Assembly (NCBI GenBank): GCA_027083345.1
Contig: JALWOZ010000028.1
Span: 1-45,507, forward strand
Origin: Candidatus Kaiserbacteria bacterium
GTDB taxonomy: Bacteria; Patescibacteriota; Minisyncoccia; Phycocordibacterales; UBA2100
Length of the DNA: 45,507 nucleotides
Reading direction: 5' to 3'
The notes beneath the pieces were generated by a model that searched no databases, had not been told where the DNA came from, and was given only the letters and a program-made list of their open reading frames with translations. This document shows, one piece after another, positions 3,840-45,507 of the stretch. Position 1 is the first letter of the stretch. Every line of letters starts with the position of its first letter. The position numbers were made by a program, and so were the translations under genes.

Positions 3840-3867
3840 TTGACAAATGCAGGATATATTGCATTAT
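3840..3867 (+). promoter_or_regulatory. Candidate sigma-70-type promoter for the small secreted protein gene
   Basis: TTGACA at 3840-3845, about 16 nt spacer, CATTAT -10-like hexamer. Confidence 0.5.
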
Positions 3868-3894
3868 GTCAATAGTTCTTTACGGGAGAAAAAC

Positions 3895-4212
3895 ATGAAA
3901 AAAATTTGGTTCTGCATTGCCGCCTTTTTGGCGGTAGCGCAGGCACAGGCAAAGCCGACTAGTCTTTGCGCTGTGCCGAATTTACCATCAGAGGCAATTG
4001 TTGCCTCTGATGGATGGACCCAGTCGTACGTCGTACTGATTGGGCTCGGTGCAAAAAGAGCTGAAGAGGCTCTCAACCTATTCTCCAGCTATGATGCTGG
4101 GGATTTGCTTGGGGGAGAAAATATTGCCGAGTTTGCATTGCTTGGCAAACCCAACGTTTTTGGCACTCAGAGCGCCGGTAACATTAACAAGGGGGCTGGT
4201 GTATGGTGTTAA
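3895..4212 (+). CDS. Small secreted protein (105 aa) with signal peptide and two mature Cys
   Basis: ATG at 3895 preceded by SD-like GGGAG; MKKIWFCIAAFLAVAQAQA signal peptide; higher GC than neighbours. Start at 3895 preferred over the 3847 ORF start. Confidence 0.6.
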   Translation: MKKIWFCIAAFLAVAQAQAKPTSLCAVPNLPSEAIVASDGWTQSYVVLIGLGAKRAEEALNLFSSYDAGDLLGGENIAEFALLGKPNVFGTQSAGNINKGAGVWC

Positions 4213-10357: not shown

Positions 10358-10576
10358 ATGAGACACGTCGTCGTTCTTGTTTTGATGGCTTTCTCTCCGT
10401 TTTTACCGGCCAGGCCGGCCTCTGCCGCCGATGCGTGGCGGCCCGCTGGCCCGGCCGTTTGCCGCGGCCAGGCAGATTGCTTGAACGCCTATTGGGCGTT
10501 CAAGAATATCGCCAAACAGGCTGAGCTGGCGTCGGCCAACTCGGTGACATGCATCACCAAACTGAAAGGGTGGTGA
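10358..10576 (+). CDS. Small secreted protein (72 aa), signal peptide, Cys-containing
   Basis: Purine-rich GAAAGGATAGGAAT before ATG; MRHVVVLVLMAFSPFLPARPASA signal peptide; strikingly GC-rich; TTGACA upstream at 10282; strong terminator immediately downstream. Confidence 0.6.
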   Translation: MRHVVVLVLMAFSPFLPARPASAADAWRPAGPAVCRGQADCLNAYWAFKNIAKQAELASANSVTCITKLKGW

Positions 10577-32230: not shown

Positions 32231-32607
32231 TGGAGATGGGGAGTAGTGAACTCCCGTGCAAGTAAGGTTGTCTAATTGAGTTTACGAGATCTAGATTACT
32301 CTGGAAATTTAAGTTATATACCTAAAGAGTAAACAAAAAAGTATATAACCGAGATTTAAGTTGTCGGGCCCTTAGTCAATCAAGTTAAGAGCCTTAACTC
32401 AAGATATAACGCCAGGTACACTCTATTGAGTATCAAGTGGCTGACGGTTGCATAGACCTATATTTAGGCGTATGCAAGGCTGAGATTAAGTGGTGACTTA
32501 ACCCCCCGTGAAAATTGCTTTGCACTTAAAGTTTGAGTAGCTTAATGCGTATACTCACCGCAATCTCGAACAAGAAGACGCACTTATTGTCGAATCAAGT
32601 CATCCCC
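32231..32607 (-). ncRNA. ssrA: tmRNA
   Basis: Minus strand: 5' GGGGATG pairs with 3' CATCTCC+A; T arm GGGAG-TTCACTA-CTCCC; 5' GGGGATGACTTGATTCGACA; tag frame GCA AAG CAA TTT TCA ... GCA TAC GCC TAA with stop in a TTGCATA/TATGCAA hairpin; next to smpB. CCA not encoded. Confidence 0.9.
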
Positions 32608-32741
32608 AAATAATGTACGAGTATATTTAAGCAGGCTACACAAAATACATTCTCAAACCCTCTATCCATAGCCGCCCACTGCCCCGGGTTTGATAATATA
32701 TTTTGTATATCCTGCCTCTCGCATTCTATTTGCGAATGACT

Positions 32742-33212
32742 TTAATACTCAGTTTTCAATGAACGGTTTATTTTACGTTTAGAGTCTCTTTCTTTAATGC
32801 TCTCGCGTTTGTCGTACTCCTTTTTACCCTTTGCTATAGCTATTTCTAGCTTTAGTTTTCGATTATTATTATACCACGCTAACGGCACTACTGTCAAACC
32901 TTTAGTGTTTTCAGCGTCGGCAAGCTCGAGTATTTCCTTTTTATGTAAAAGTAATTTACGTGTGCGGTATGGGTCGTATTCTTTAGGAGTATTGGCTTCT
33001 TGGTAATGGCTTATGCTGGAGTTGACAAGGTATGCCTCGTCGTCTCTCACCACTATGTGCGCCCCCATTAAACTTGCTTTACCACTGCGCACAGCCTTAA
33101 CCTCGTGACCAAATAGTTGTACACCGGCCTCAAACTTTTTCAATAAAGCATAGTCAAAACACGCCTTCTTGTTTTGGATTTTTATCGGTTTTGATTTATT
33201 TATTTTAGCCAT
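32742..33212 (-). CDS. smpB: SsrA-binding protein SmpB
   Basis: KKACFDYALLKKFEAGVQLFGHEVKAVRSGKASLMGAHIVV, EANTPKEYDPYRTRKLLLHKKEI, basic C-tail. Confidence 0.96.
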   Translation of the reverse strand: MAKINKSKPIKIQNKKACFDYALLKKFEAGVQLFGHEVKAVRSGKASLMGAHIVVRDDEAYLVNSSISHYQEANTPKEYDPYRTRKLLLHKKEILELADAENTKGLTVVPLAWYNNNRKLKLEIAIAKGKKEYDKRESIKERDSKRKINRSLKTEY

Positions 33213-33244
33213 GCTGGTACTATAACATAATATGCATAAAACAG

Positions 33245-33272
33245 TTGCTAATTGTAAAGTTTTGCGTATAAT
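33245..33272 (+). promoter_or_regulatory. Promoter for rpmF-nusB-rnc operon
   Basis: TTGCTA - 16 nt - TATAAT (33267-33272), 8 nt before ATG 33281. Confidence 0.65.
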
Positions 33273-33280
33273 GTGGCGCT

Positions 33281-33652
33281 ATGGTAAGAATGAGAATAAA
33301 CAGAAGCGCGACACGTAAGCGCCGCAGTCATCACGGACTCACAGAGCCTCGTCTTAGTACATGTAAGGATTGTGGAGCAAAATACTTACGCCACAGGGCG
33401 TGTTTAGAGTGTGGTAAGTATAGAGGGCGAATTGTTATAGATGTTGAAGCTAAGAAAGCTAAAAAGGCAACTAAGAAGATAGCTCAGCTTGAGGCTATAC
33501 ATCAAGAGAAGACCAATGAGCTTGAGGCAAAAGAAGAAGATAAAAAGAGCGTAAACAATAAGTCGAAAGTCTCTTCAAATAAAATAAAAGCGGAAAAGAA
33601 AACAAAAACTACTACTAAAAAAACCGGTAAAGACGCTAAAAAAGACAAGTAA
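33281..33652 (+). CDS. rpmF: 50S ribosomal protein L32 with long Lys-rich C-terminal extension
   Basis: RKRRSHHGL, CKDCGAKYLRHRACLECGKYRGR zinc ribbon; about 70-aa Lys/Thr-rich tail. Confidence 0.9.
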   Translation: MVRMRINRSATRKRRSHHGLTEPRLSTCKDCGAKYLRHRACLECGKYRGRIVIDVEAKKAKKATKKIAQLEAIHQEKTNELEAKEEDKKSVNNKSKVSSNKIKAEKKTKTTTKKTGKDAKKDK

Positions 33653-42229: not shown

Positions 42230-42823
42230 CTAAAATCCGAGAGTATGAGTTATTGCGAACTTGTCTGGCTTTAGCCAATCAGAGGTGTCTATCGATGCCT
42301 CCTTCTTTTTGTTAAAGTCTTTATATTTTATAGAATCATGCTCTAGCATGTAGTCAAATACTTTTTTTGTTATCTCTACATCTTTTTGACAATATTTGCG
42401 TATGTTCTCTATGTCTCCGGCTTGCCACCAGCGTATGGCGTCTAGACCGCCGCCTATCTTTTTAGTTCCTAATGTTGCTGATGCGATGTCGTCTAATTTT
42501 ATCCTTCTCCCTATGGATTTTTGGATCTCTACCATTAGATCTAAACTCTTTATAGCCTCTAAGTCTCCAGGATAGTATTTGTTTAATAAAGGTATATCAA
42601 AGTGGTCTGAGTTGTAGCCTATTAACATGTCGGTGTTTTCTATAATAGGCCATAGTTTATGCAATTCATCATGCATAAAGCTTTGGTATTCTTTAGTCTT
42701 GGAATCCCATATTACAAGTAGAGATATGTCTAGAGCAGTAACATCTCGAGAACCTACTTGATCAAATGTATTTTGAGTCTCTATATCAAATATTATGTAG
42801 TTTGTGTTATCTTGATTATTCAT
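42230..42823 (-). CDS. DEDD-family 3'-5' exonuclease (RNase H-like)
   Basis: IIFDIETQ, LIGYNSDHFDIPLL, YCQKDVEITKKVFDY. Confidence 0.82.
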   Translation of the reverse strand: MNNQDNTNYIIFDIETQNTFDQVGSRDVTALDISLLVIWDSKTKEYQSFMHDELHKLWPIIENTDMLIGYNSDHFDIPLLNKYYPGDLEAIKSLDLMVEIQKSIGRRIKLDDIASATLGTKKIGGGLDAIRWWQAGDIENIRKYCQKDVEITKKVFDYMLEHDSIKYKDFNKKKEASIDTSDWLKPDKFAITHTLGF

Positions 42824-42852
42824 AGTGAGCGATTATATCATATAAATAAAAA

Positions 42853-42882
42853 AACATCCCGATCTTGTTTTGTCGGGATGTT
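42853..42882 (-). terminator. Intrinsic terminator overlapping the stop codon of the 73-aa gene
   Basis: Minus: AACATCCCGA...TCGGGATGTT followed by TTTTTATTTA. Confidence 0.85.
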
Positions 42883-43102
42883 AGTTTATGGGGCAGATGT
42901 TTGCGTTGATCTCTCTTTGCAAATGATCCCAACCTCGTTCGGCCTCTTCTTCACGAAGCATTTGCAGGGCATCTTCTTCATCTTTTCTTCTTTTTATATT
43001 TTCAGCCCTTTTGAGTCCGCCTTTGCGCCCCATTTTGCGCAAGGCATGTCGGTCCCCTCGGTGGATTGCGGAGAGGACATGTTTTGGCTTTTGTCTTGGC
43101 AT
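42881..43102 (-). CDS. Small basic/charged protein (73 aa), unknown function
   Basis: MPRQKPKHVLSAIHRGDRHALRKMGRKGGLKRAENIKRRKDEEDALQMLREEEAERGWDHLQREINANICPIN; strong SD GAAAGGGGGTGAT upstream of ATG 43102. Confidence 0.75.
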   Translation of the reverse strand: MPRQKPKHVLSAIHRGDRHALRKMGRKGGLKRAENIKRRKDEEDALQMLREEEAERGWDHLQREINANICPIN

Positions 43103-43142
43103 CTGTATCACCCCCTTTCGCCAAGTCCGTGTAAATAGTAAT

Positions 43143-44456
43143 CTATTTATCGGATAGTTGCAATATATTTACTATTTCAGTGAGGATATTCTCTTTGTCT
43201 ATTTGTGTCTGAGTGCCGGTAGTCATATTTTTAAGTGTGTAATAACTTTTTGCTAGCTCATCTTCTCCTATGATTATTACTTTGTTTATATTTAATTTAT
43301 CTGCATACTTGATAGCTTTGTCTAATTTAAATATAGTAGATACTTCTGTTGGTATTTTGACATCTCGCAGAGTATCTGCAATCCTGTAAGCCTCATATAC
43401 ACACTCTACAGAAGAGCTGATAGGGATTATAAAAACTTTAGTTGGAGTACTGCTATTGGTTTTCAATAAATCATAAGTTTTAAGTTGGTCAAATAGGCGA
43501 GAGAGCCCTATGGAGATTCCGACTCCGGGTAGTTTAGTGTTGGAGTATGTGCCTATCAGGTTGTCATATCTACCACCACTACATATTGATCCAATTTGTG
43601 GGTAATCGTTTAGAGTTGTCTCATATACCGTGCCGGTGTAGTAATCTAGTCCGCGCGCTACAGATAAGTCTATTTGTAATATAGAGAGGGAGTTTGCTAT
43701 TTGGGCCAACTCTTTAATACCGGTTACAAATTGTTCATTTTTTATATCCATTTGCTCTAGTTGTTGGATAACGCACTCATTCGCACCTTTTATGTTCACA
43801 AAGTCTAGTATTTTATTTATTGTTGTATCTTCTACGCCCGAGTTAGAGAGCTCTTTAGATATTCCTTCTACTCCTATTTTATCTAGTTTATCTACTATGC
43901 GCAGGGTGCTCTCTTGATCTACACCAAGCTCCTCATAAAAACCATTGAGTATTTTGCGGTTGTTGACTTTGATGGTGAATTTTAAGTTAGGTAATATATC
44001 ATCAAATATCCTGTTTATTATCTGAGGTATCTCGATGTCTGCAGTAAGAGAGAGTTCGCCTTTATCTATGATGTCTATGTCGCATTGGTAAAATTCTCTT
44101 AGACGCCCTGCTTGCGGTCGTTCGCCACGGTATACCTTGCCGATAGCATATCTGCGGAAGGGGAATGAAAGCTCTCGCGCATGCTCGGCTACATAGCGCG
44201 CAAGGGGTACGGTGAGGTCAAAGCGCATTGCGTAGTCTGTCTTGCCTTTGGTAAATTGGTATATCTGCTTCTCTGTCTCTCCGCCGGCTTTAGCCAGGAG
44301 CGCCTCAGCGCGCTCAAGCACAGGTGTGTCTAGAGGGATGAATCCGTAGAGCTCGTATGTATCGCGGATTATTCCAAGCATCTTATTAAAAGCCATTTGC
44401 TCTGCTGGTAACAACTCCCTAAATCCCTTAAGTGTTTTTGTATTAACTTTATTCAT
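43143..44456 (-). CDS. hisS: Histidyl-tRNA synthetase
   Basis: FRYAIGKVYRGERPQAGRLREFYQCDIDII, ARGLDYYTGTVYE, GRYDNLIG, GVGISIGLSRL. Confidence 0.96.
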   Translation of the reverse strand: MNKVNTKTLKGFRELLPAEQMAFNKMLGIIRDTYELYGFIPLDTPVLERAEALLAKAGGETEKQIYQFTKGKTDYAMRFDLTVPLARYVAEHARELSFPFRRYAIGKVYRGERPQAGRLREFYQCDIDIIDKGELSLTADIEIPQIINRIFDDILPNLKFTIKVNNRKILNGFYEELGVDQESTLRIVDKLDKIGVEGISKELSNSGVEDTTINKILDFVNIKGANECVIQQLEQMDIKNEQFVTGIKELAQIANSLSILQIDLSVARGLDYYTGTVYETTLNDYPQIGSICSGGRYDNLIGTYSNTKLPGVGISIGLSRLFDQLKTYDLLKTNSSTPTKVFIIPISSSVECVYEAYRIADTLRDVKIPTEVSTIFKLDKAIKYADKLNINKVIIIGEDELAKSYYTLKNMTTGTQTQIDKENILTEIVNILQLSDK

Positions 44457-44460
44457 AATA

Positions 44461-45507
44461 TTAAGATAATTCTAGCATAGTTAAAAAAATATGGTAATAT
44501 TTGCTTGCACGGAGAGTTGGCTGAGTGGCCAGAATGCAAATTGCTTTGCTTTCTGGGGGAGGAGCTCTCCGACCGGCAGACACGAAGCCGACGGTCTCAA
44601 ACTTGTTTGAGACGACAATTCGAGCGAAGCGAAGTATATTGGAGAGTTGGCTGAGTGGCTGAAAGCGCACCCTTGCTAAGGGTGTAAGGGGGAAACTCCT
44701 TCGAGGGTTCGAATCCCTCACTCTCCGCCAATTTACGATTTTGTCATTTTGGAAAGATATTGCCTCGCGGCAAAGCCGCTCGGCAGGCGCGCTTCGCGCG
44801 CCAAAGCCCCATTTTGCAACGATTTGCCACGCTCCGCGCGGACAAAAAGAAATGTTTTGGTTTTGGAGCTGGAAGTTCGAACCAATCTTTTTTAGAAAAT
44901 CCCGAATCCCTTCGGGATTTTCTTTGGAAGCGATAATTTTGGCTTGTTTGCTTGCTTTTACGAATCGGGCGGCGAGTTCGAACCGATTATCGCTTTTTTG
45001 CTCAAAAGACTTCAATTTGTCTTTCAAAACTTGTTTTTGATTGATGAGTTTGTTTTTCGCTTTTTGGTATTCTTTGATGTTCAAAACACTTTCCAGATAA
45101 GCGTTCATCAGCTTTTCCAGTTTCTCGTCAATTTTTGAGATTTCCTGCTTTATCTTTTGAGCAAAAAAGCTTGATGATTGCGCCTTTGCTTTTCTTGCCT
45201 TTTCAATCTCTTTCAACATCCAATCGGCGCAATCATCAGGCAAAGAAACTTTTTGAATTTCCTTTTTTATTTGAGATGAAATTTTTTCTTCTCTTGTAAA
45301 TATATTTTGCGAGCATTTATGATTTGGATTTTTCCTCGTGCAATAATAGTAAATATATTCTTTTCCGCTTTTCTTGATTTTCTTGTCCGCCGTGATTGAG
45401 TATCCGCACTCTCCGCATTTAAAAATTCCCCGATAAAGAAAAAATTTCATCTTATCCGCTTTTTGCGGTTTAGATTTTCTTTTCATCACTTCTTGTACTT
45501 GATCAAA
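44461..45507 (-). CDS. Serine recombinase, C-terminal part (zinc ribbon and coiled coil); N-terminus beyond window; frame runs through antisense of tRNA-Ser
   Basis: FDQVQEVMKRKSKPQKADKMKFFLYRGIFKCGECGYSITADKKIKKSGKEYIYYYCTRKNPNHKCSQ recombinase zinc beta ribbon. Frame open to the window edge and down to 44461. Confidence 0.85.
   Translation of the reverse strand, partial: FDQVQEVMKRKSKPQKADKMKFFLYRGIFKCGECGYSITADKKIKKSGKEYIYYYCTRKNPNHKCSQNIFTREEKISSQIKKEIQKVSLPDDCADWMLKEIEKARKAKAQSSSFFAQKIKQEISKIDEKLEKLMNAYLESVLNIKEYQKAKNKLINQKQVLKDKLKSFEQKSDNRFELAARFVKASKQAKIIASKENPEGIRDFLKKIGSNFQLQNQNISFCPRGAWQIVAKWGFGARSAPAERLCREAISFQNDKIVNWRRVRDSNPRRSFPLTPLARVRFQPLSQLSNILRFARIVVSNKFETVGFVSAGRRAPPPESKAICILATQPTLRASKYYHIFLTMLELS
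44511..44574 (+). pseudogene. Truncated/rearranged tRNA-Ser 5' copy (tRNA-like remnant)
   Basis: 44511-44529 GGAGAGTTGGCTGAGTGGC identical to 44641-44659; followed by unrelated hairpin and CTCTCCG that can pair with GGAGAG; no anticodon or T arm. Confidence 0.7.
44641..44730 (+). tRNA. tRNA-Ser (GCT), CCA encoded
   Basis: GGAGAGT...ACTCTCC-G-CCA, anticodon arm CACCC-TTGCTAA-GGGTG, long variable arm, T arm GAGGG-TTCGAAT-CCCTC. Confidence 0.95.

What the first reader, a model, noticed from the sequence alone, without database searches (positions are those of the whole stretch)
42853..43140. Mini-cassette 3: small basic protein with strong Shine-Dalgarno in an SD-poor genome
Minus strand: TTGCAA-17-TACTAT, then GAAAGGGGGTGATACAG-ATG (extended match to a bacterial anti-SD), a 73-aa protein with a Lys/Arg-rich GRKGGLKRAENIKRRKDEE helix and C-terminal NANICPIN, and a terminator stem overlapping the stop codon. 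It lies between hisS and the exonuclease. Together with cassettes 1 and 2 this suggests a class of SD-driven small-gene modules distinct from the leaderless housekeeping genes.
Basis: partly seen in the sequence, partly recalled or inferred. Interest (0 to 1): 0.65.

Follow-up and report, generated by a model that had tools for sequence, protein, structure and literature searches.

The report
SD-led small-gene cassette, no anti-SD rRNA
A tiny self-contained gene has slipped in between two housekeeping genes of an ultra-small bacterium, and it carries a near-perfect copy of the classical ribosome-binding signal although that bacterium's ribosomal RNA, like every other one examined in its order, lacks the sequence that normally reads that signal.

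Summary
Window 42881-43102(-) encodes a 73-aa protein behind GAAAGGGGGTGATACAG-ATG (-18.0 kcal/mol to a canonical anti-SD, far beyond any housekeeping gene here) and ends in a terminator hairpin (z -5.3). Housekeeping genes are leaderless-like and not SD-enriched. The promoter is weak (8/12). In a same-genus genome hisS and the exonuclease overlap directly, so the 319-bp spacer holding the cassette is most simply an insertion. The protein belongs to an unnamed, patchy family (seven complete members) found almost only in this order; no Pfam, NCBIfam, PHROG, PDB, phage or plasmid match. New: the genome's 16S rRNA, and all ~60 16S tails examined in the order, lack CCUCC. Yet AAAGGAGGTGAN{4,9}ATG occurs 115 times in 297 order genomes against 25 for the reversed control, with a sharp spacing peak at 5 nt (the spacing seen here), mostly before small intergenic ORFs without known homologues. 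Best reading: moron-like, horizontally spreading small-gene cassettes whose SD reflects ribosomes other than this order's; an unconventional in-cell reader of the SD is the main rival. Protein function is inferred only.

The parts
42824..43142 (-). Whole inter-hisS/exonuclease segment (319 bp) that holds the cassette; absent in same-genus genome G001, where hisS and the exonuclease overlap by ATGA
43158..43163 (-). -35-like hexamer TTGCAA (inside the 3' end of hisS)
   Evidence: sequence; 4/6 match to consensus, weak
43135..43140 (-). -10-like hexamer TACTAT, spacer 17
   Evidence: sequence; 4/6 match, weak
43107..43119 (-). Extended Shine-Dalgarno GAAAGGGGGTGAT; 5 nt from GGTGA to ATG
   Evidence: -18.0 kcal/mol to GAUCACCUCCUUA; stronger than before any first start of a long ORF in 440 kb; spacing equals the order-wide mode
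42881..43102 (-). 73-aa protein gene (MPRQKPKHVLSAIHRGDRHALRKMGRKGGLKRAENIKRRKDEEDALQMLREEEAERGWDHLQREINANICPIN)
   Evidence: relatives in other genomes at 26-38% identity; GC 0.47 against mean 0.40, sd 0.03, of genes of 150 aa or more
42848..42882 (-). Intrinsic-terminator-like hairpin AACATCCCGA...TCGGGATGTT + U-run, overlapping the stop codon
   Evidence: -18.3 kcal/mol, z -5.3
42832..42837 (-). TATAAT box 14 nt before the exonuclease ATG (leaderless-type promoter of the downstream gene)
   Evidence: sequence; genome-wide peak of TATAAT at -16..-12
43143..44456 (-). hisS, upstream neighbour
   Evidence: Pfam tRNA-synt_His 6.7e-38
42230..42823 (-). RNase H-like 3'-5' exonuclease, downstream neighbour
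   Evidence: Pfam RNase_H_2 2.8e-11

Best explanation
This is a self-contained 'moron-like' small-gene cassette (weak promoter, leader with a canonical extended SD, 73-aa ORF, terminator) that entered the ancestral hisS-exonuclease junction of this Patescibacteria-type genome. It encodes a member of a new, patchily spread family of small proteins: a short helix, then one long helix with a basic first half and an acidic second half, then a conserved C-terminal tail. It belongs to an order-wide class of such SD-led mini-cassettes. Inferred: the SD does not work by classical pairing in this cell, because the 16S rRNA has lost CCUCC. It is there because the cassettes circulate horizontally, by mobile DNA or natural transformation, through cells whose ribosomes do have an anti-SD, and in this order they are translated without it from a short purine-rich leader. 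Also inferred: the protein acts by binding nucleic acid or a partner protein, as a small regulator or accessory factor, not as housekeeping machinery.
For: Shown: hisS and the exonuclease overlap directly in same-genus G001 and lie about 30 bp or less apart in another genus of the family, so the 319-bp spacer is most simply an insertion. A second small SD-led ORF, downstream of the 16S gene in this genome, is likewise missing from the matching G001 stretch, and in G011 an unrelated small cassette with promoter, SD-like leader and terminator sits upstream of the same exonuclease gene. GC 0.47 against 0.40. Patchy: family hits in 10 of 297 order genomes, some of them weak, and none in the three same-genus genomes. 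No CCUCC in about 60 of 60 16S tails. The SD class is 115 against 25 control hits with a spacing peak at 5 nt, chi-square p 5e-19; ORFs mostly intergenic, median 74 aa, GC about 5 points above the locus; nine of ten tested class proteins have no Pfam match, the tenth being HypC. Model: helices 7-15 and 18-67, mean pLDDT 90, pTM 0.54.
Against: No donor was found: no relative in the phage or plasmid collections, in IMG/VR or in GTDB genomes by peptide pattern, and only weak hits outside the order in a class-wide sample. Six of ten family genes at about 30% identity still carry SDs of -9.3 kcal/mol or better (Mann-Whitney p 0.004 against neighbouring genes), which suggests the SD is kept useful inside the order rather than freshly imported each time. 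HypC with an SD in two genomes of one genus points the same way. Loss of the cassette in G001 instead of gain here is not formally excluded.
Confidence: 0.45

Rival explanations
1. The SD is functional in this cell by a route other than the 16S 3' tail: a trans-acting RNA or ribosomal element with CCUCC, or a protein that recognises the purine-rich GGAGGTGA leader. It would give a small set of regulated, leadered genes a separate initiation channel beside the leaderless housekeeping genes.
For: SDs are enriched and precisely spaced in the whole order and kept in diverged family members; HypC keeps an SD in two genomes of one genus.
Against: No conserved CCUCC elsewhere in 60 16S genes. No intergenic TCACCTCC in the scanned 440 kb that looks like an anti-SD RNA; one of the few intergenic hits is the complement of an SD itself. 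One third of the genome was not scanned.
Confidence: 0.27
2. The cassettes are meant to be translated by another cell's ribosomes: the episymbiont's bacterial host (or a virus-infected host) has a canonical anti-SD, and DNA or RNA carrying these small genes is delivered there.
For: The SD and its spacing are those of anti-SD-bearing bacteria; several products are small secreted-, membrane- or Cys/Gly-rich-looking peptides; cultivated Patescibacteria are obligate episymbionts (PMC12206443, abstract).
Against: No delivery system was tied to the cassettes; terminators and local promoters suit ordinary expression; the host is unknown.
Confidence: 0.08
3. The purine-rich leader resembles an SD by chance in this one gene, which is otherwise an ordinary orphan gene.
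For: Scrambled anti-SDs give similar numbers of strong-energy small ORFs in this genome.
Against: -18 kcal/mol at the order's modal spacing, SDs in most family members and the 115-to-25 order-wide excess.
Confidence: 0.07
4. The family is an ancestral gene of the order, lost in most lineages, with the SD an ancestral relic from before the anti-SD was lost.
For: Shared neighbours in different taxonomic families: Mpg glycosylase, exchanger and P-type ATPase near the gene in G248 and G203, GatB/YqeY in G150 and G203; ung in G014 and G017 of one genus (gene names read from the sequences, not profile-tested).
Against: Clean hisS-exonuclease junctions in the same genus and in another genus of the family, higher GC, and a relic would not be kept with exact spacing long after the anti-SD was lost.
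Confidence: 0.13

Closest known systems
Phage 'morons' (autonomous promoter-ORF-terminator units inserted between phage genes; own knowledge)
   Same: Small, foreign-composition, self-contained unit inserted between two genes that are otherwise adjacent, with its own signals
   Different: Lies in a bacterial chromosome next to housekeeping genes; no phage relative found; carries an SD that the resident 16S rRNA cannot read
Non-anti-SD genomes (Lim, Furuta and Kobayashi; PMC3522020)
   Same: 16S rRNA without CCUCC and few SDs before genes
   Different: There the loss of anti-SD is reported as always accompanied by loss of SD-like sequences; here a class of genes keeps near-perfect SDs. Reported in Flavobacteria, Proteobacteria and Mycoplasma; no report for this order was found in the searched library
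Ribosomal protein bS21 (small, basic, two helices; PMC9723584)
   Same: Size range, helical, basic, conserved C-terminal tail
   Different: No sequence match by Pfam or NCBIfam, no fold match in PDB; acidic C-terminal half; present in few genomes
Leaderless versus SD-led translation
   Same: Two initiation signal types in one genome
   Different: The SD-led set here lacks its rRNA partner

Membership tests
Moron-like inserted cassette | Neighbouring genes adjacent in relatives without the cassette | tested here: met
   G001 hisS/exonuclease overlap; G014, G010, G006 of another genus of the family also adjacent
Moron-like inserted cassette | Own terminator | tested here: met
Moron-like inserted cassette | Own promoter | tested here: inconclusive
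   8/12 consensus bases, not above chance
Moron-like inserted cassette | Phage or mobile-element origin | tested here: not met
   no match in PHROGs, phage or plasmid records, IMG/VR; hence 'works like', not 'is', a moron
Classical SD-driven gene | SD complementary to CCUCC at suitable spacing | tested here: met
Classical SD-driven gene | Anti-SD CCUCC in the cell's 16S rRNA | tested here: not met
bS21 | bS21 sequence family | tested here: not met
Known nucleic-acid-binding family | Profile or fold match | tested here: not met
Nucleic-acid-binding protein (function) | Binds DNA or RNA | not testable with these tools
   only charge: K+R 15 against D+E 3 in residues 1-41

The most novel reading that the evidence does not exclude
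A whole bacterial order has lost the 16S anti-SD yet keeps a dedicated class of SD-led small-gene cassettes, so either it has a second, non-rRNA reader of Shine-Dalgarno sequences or these cassettes are built for translation in another organism's cytoplasm.
Probability: 0.3. Interest if true: 0.9.

Novelty: new variant of a known kind. Interest (0 to 1): 0.68.

Why it matters
[quoted passage not shown] Here a large order without CCUCC keeps a set of small genes with near-perfect, correctly spaced SDs. That makes two questions testable: what reads these SDs, and how small genes enter and spread among ultra-small, genome-reduced bacteria. It also gives a simple search handle (AAAGGAGGTGA-N5-ATG in CCUCC-less genomes) for many small proteins that lack any family, including the new family described here.

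Tried and rejected
Phage, plasmid or IMG/VR origin: no relatives (for other class members 112-115). A second rRNA site or trans RNA with CCUCC: not found in what was scanned. An intron hiding the 16S 3' end: the gene does carry an intron with an ORF further upstream, but the tail after h45 lacks CCUCC in every one of about 60 genomes, so an intron exactly there in all is unlikely. A contaminant contig: the cassette sits on the 45-kb window contig beside genes with syntenic relatives. A count-based claim for the class within this genome alone: rejected, since scrambled anti-SDs give similar counts. The 51-aa fragment in L009/L019 is a member broken by a frameshift. L011 and L014 share only the N-terminal half and were treated as doubtful members, as were the other hits near E 0.005. 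Profile-based peptide scans of the collections could not be run because the family alignment is too variable. Weak class-level hits outside the order (L056-L062) were not accepted as members. Fold search found nothing usable for a long single helix.

Full report
Observation. The minus strand of 42848-43163 carries TTGCAA-17-TACTAT, a short leader with GAAAGGGGGTGATACAG, an ATG at 43102, a 73-codon ORF ending at 42881 and a hairpin with a U-run that starts inside the stop codon. The hairpin folds at -18.3 kcal/mol (shuffles -5.9, z -5.3). The promoter hexamers reach only 8 of 12 consensus bases and prove nothing alone. The neighbours are hisS and an RNase H-like 3'-5' exonuclease.

Is the SD exceptional? 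About 440 kb of the 658-kb genome was taken out; some short contigs and stretches are withheld and read N. Pairing energy to GAUCACCUCCUUA in the 17 nt ending 3 nt before the start is -18.0 kcal/mol here. Among 383 ORFs of 80 aa or more the best first start is -13.6, and energies of -8 or better are no commoner at gene starts (7.8%) than at internal in-frame starts (9.8%). A TATAAT-like box lies within 30 nt of 62% of gene starts against 19% of internal ATGs, with a peak at -16 to -12: leaderless genes. The exonuclease itself follows this rule (TATAAT 14 nt before its ATG).

The missing partner. The single 16S gene found is interrupted by an intron; its 3' end reads GTCGTAACAAGGCACGGCTAGCGGAAGCTGGTCGTGGAATCAATCCAAATGG, with no CCUCC (Rfam reports a group II D1-D4 match in the intron). 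No genome among 59 relatives has the canonical GGATCACCTC after the conserved site. Reading 16S tails directly gave 37 and then 23 more (chosen among SD-module genomes; a few genomes were read twice): none has CCUCC in the tail proper. CCUCC elsewhere in these 16S genes is rare and not conserved. Non-anti-SD genomes are known in other bacteria, and there SDs vanish too (PMC3522020). No paper in the searched library describes this for Patescibacteria; one notes that CPR 16S 3' ends are often incompletely annotated (PMC12641178). Preprints and most subscription papers are not held, so this is not proof of priority. The assignment to Patescibacteria/CPR rests on genome size, the 16S intron and general character (own knowledge), not on a named record; the only named relative is from a metagenome bin listed as 'uncultured bacterium'.

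The insertion. In G001, same genus, the hisS stop overlaps the exonuclease start (TTATGAC); in G014, G010 and G006, another genus of the same family, the two genes lie within about 30 bp. In the window they are 319 bp apart, and this segment holds the whole cassette. GC of the ORF is 0.47 against 0.40 (sd 0.03) for genes of 150 aa or more. A second SD-led small ORF of this genome (48 aa, between 16S and clpC) is absent from the corresponding G001 stretch, and in G011 a different small gene with SD-like leader and terminator precedes the same exonuclease. Gain is the simpler reading; loss in G001 is possible.

The family. Protein search finds relatives only at 26-38% identity, in genomes of several taxonomic families of the order: L003, L004, L006, L007, L008, L010 and a frameshifted one, L009. 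Ten of 297 order genomes gave hits at E 0.01 or better, four of them weak or partial; in a class-wide sample of 384 nothing convincing lies outside the order. Common features: P near the N-terminus followed by [VI] and A, a GD/GE turn, [MLF]-x-[RK]-x-[GA]-[GA], and a C-terminal N-x-x-x-x-P-[IVL]. AlphaFold gives helices 7-15 and 18-67, mean pLDDT 90 but pTM 0.54 with seven sequences; no PDB or convincing viral fold match. Residues 1-41 hold 15 K/R and 3 D/E, the rest 3 K/R and 9 D/E. Family genes carry better SDs than their neighbours: 6 of 10 at -9.3 or better against about 10% of neighbouring genes, p 0.004 (two of the ten are doubtful members).

The class. AAGGAGGTGAN{4,9}ATG: 18 hits against 9 control in 59 genomes. 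AAAGGAGGTGAN{4,9}ATG: 115 hits in 84 of 297 genomes against 25 for the reversed pattern (counts by hand from the table, two of the 115 overlap at one site). Spacers of 4, 5, 6, 7, 8, 9 nt: 20, 55, 22, 6, 9, 3 (chi-square p 5e-19). The finding has GGTGA+TACAG+ATG, i.e. 5 nt. Of 30 loci read, 23 starts are not inside longer genes; median ORF 74 aa, GC 5 points above the locus. One cassette lies antisense between rpsN and rplE in a ribosomal operon, another beside rnhB and rpmF (names read from sequence). HypC is the only product with a Pfam family among ten tested; no PHROG matched. Some hits on small AT-rich contigs may be binning errors. Within this single genome the number of strong-SD small ORFs does not exceed scrambled controls, so the class rests on the order-wide test.

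Mechanism. Shown: gene, SD, terminator, extra segment at the hisS-exonuclease junction, absence of CCUCC, order-wide class. Inferred: horizontal spread, SD-independent translation in this cell, nucleic-acid or partner binding. The persistence of well-spaced SDs in diverged members is the main evidence against simple import and keeps the 'second reader' rival alive.

Noticed in passing
L015 (G000:C12) around 32,560-33,600; tails in L025-L054, L063-L069, L156-L179: 16S rRNA 3' ends in the whole order end ...CGUGGAAUAUUUCAA... with no CCUCC; many tails contain a short inverted repeat such as UUCCAAAUUGGAA right after h45.
   Followed up: yes
G000:C12:32,650-33,600 (L015): 16S gene interrupted near its 3' end by an intron with a homing-endonuclease-like ORF and a group II D1-D4 Rfam match; a mixed or mis-called intron type.
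   Followed up: partly
L098:18981-19106 (-), G000:C29: 41-aa membrane peptide with the best intergenic SD of the scanned genome (AAAGGAGGTGATTTTAG-ATG, -19.2 kcal/mol), GC 0.52, very strong terminator.
   Followed up: partly
L105:13852-14031 (+) and L015:8111-8257 (+): Two more GC-rich (0.52) small SD-led ORFs with terminators; the second (48 aa, Arg-rich, between 16S and clpC) is absent at the same place in G001.
   Followed up: partly
L188 (G011), upstream of the exonuclease gene: An unrelated small membrane-protein cassette with TATAAT, GGAGG/AAAGGA leader and terminator sits next to the same exonuclease gene: a possible shared insertion hot spot.
   Followed up: no
L142 (G133) around 1519: SD-led 74-aa cassette, GC 0.53 against 0.38, inserted antisense between rpsN and rplE in a ribosomal protein operon.
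   Followed up: no
L097 (G000:C27, 14 kb): This contig has unusually many SD-preceded genes for this genome; it may be a mobile element or a foreign contig.
   Followed up: no
L113, L148, L141, L154: Class members with Gly/Cys- or Asp/Gly-rich short peptides (e.g. MKNRNSFGPNDPECGGSCSPGGSPCDGDCDG) that look like modified-peptide precursors.
   Followed up: no
window 44461-45489 (-): C-terminal part of a large serine recombinase (zinc-ribbon domain, phrog_95 integrase) next to hisS at the contig end; a possible source of mobility nearby.
   Followed up: no
L019:7443-7700 (-) and L020:4140-4340 (+): Further small SD-led genes near family members (85 aa basic; 66 aa with GGAGGTG, -14.1 kcal/mol).
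   Followed up: no
window 3847-4212 (+) and 10358-10576 (+): Presumed 'cassettes 1 and 2': small secreted Cys-containing proteins with signal peptides and strong terminators but weak SDs.
   Followed up: partly
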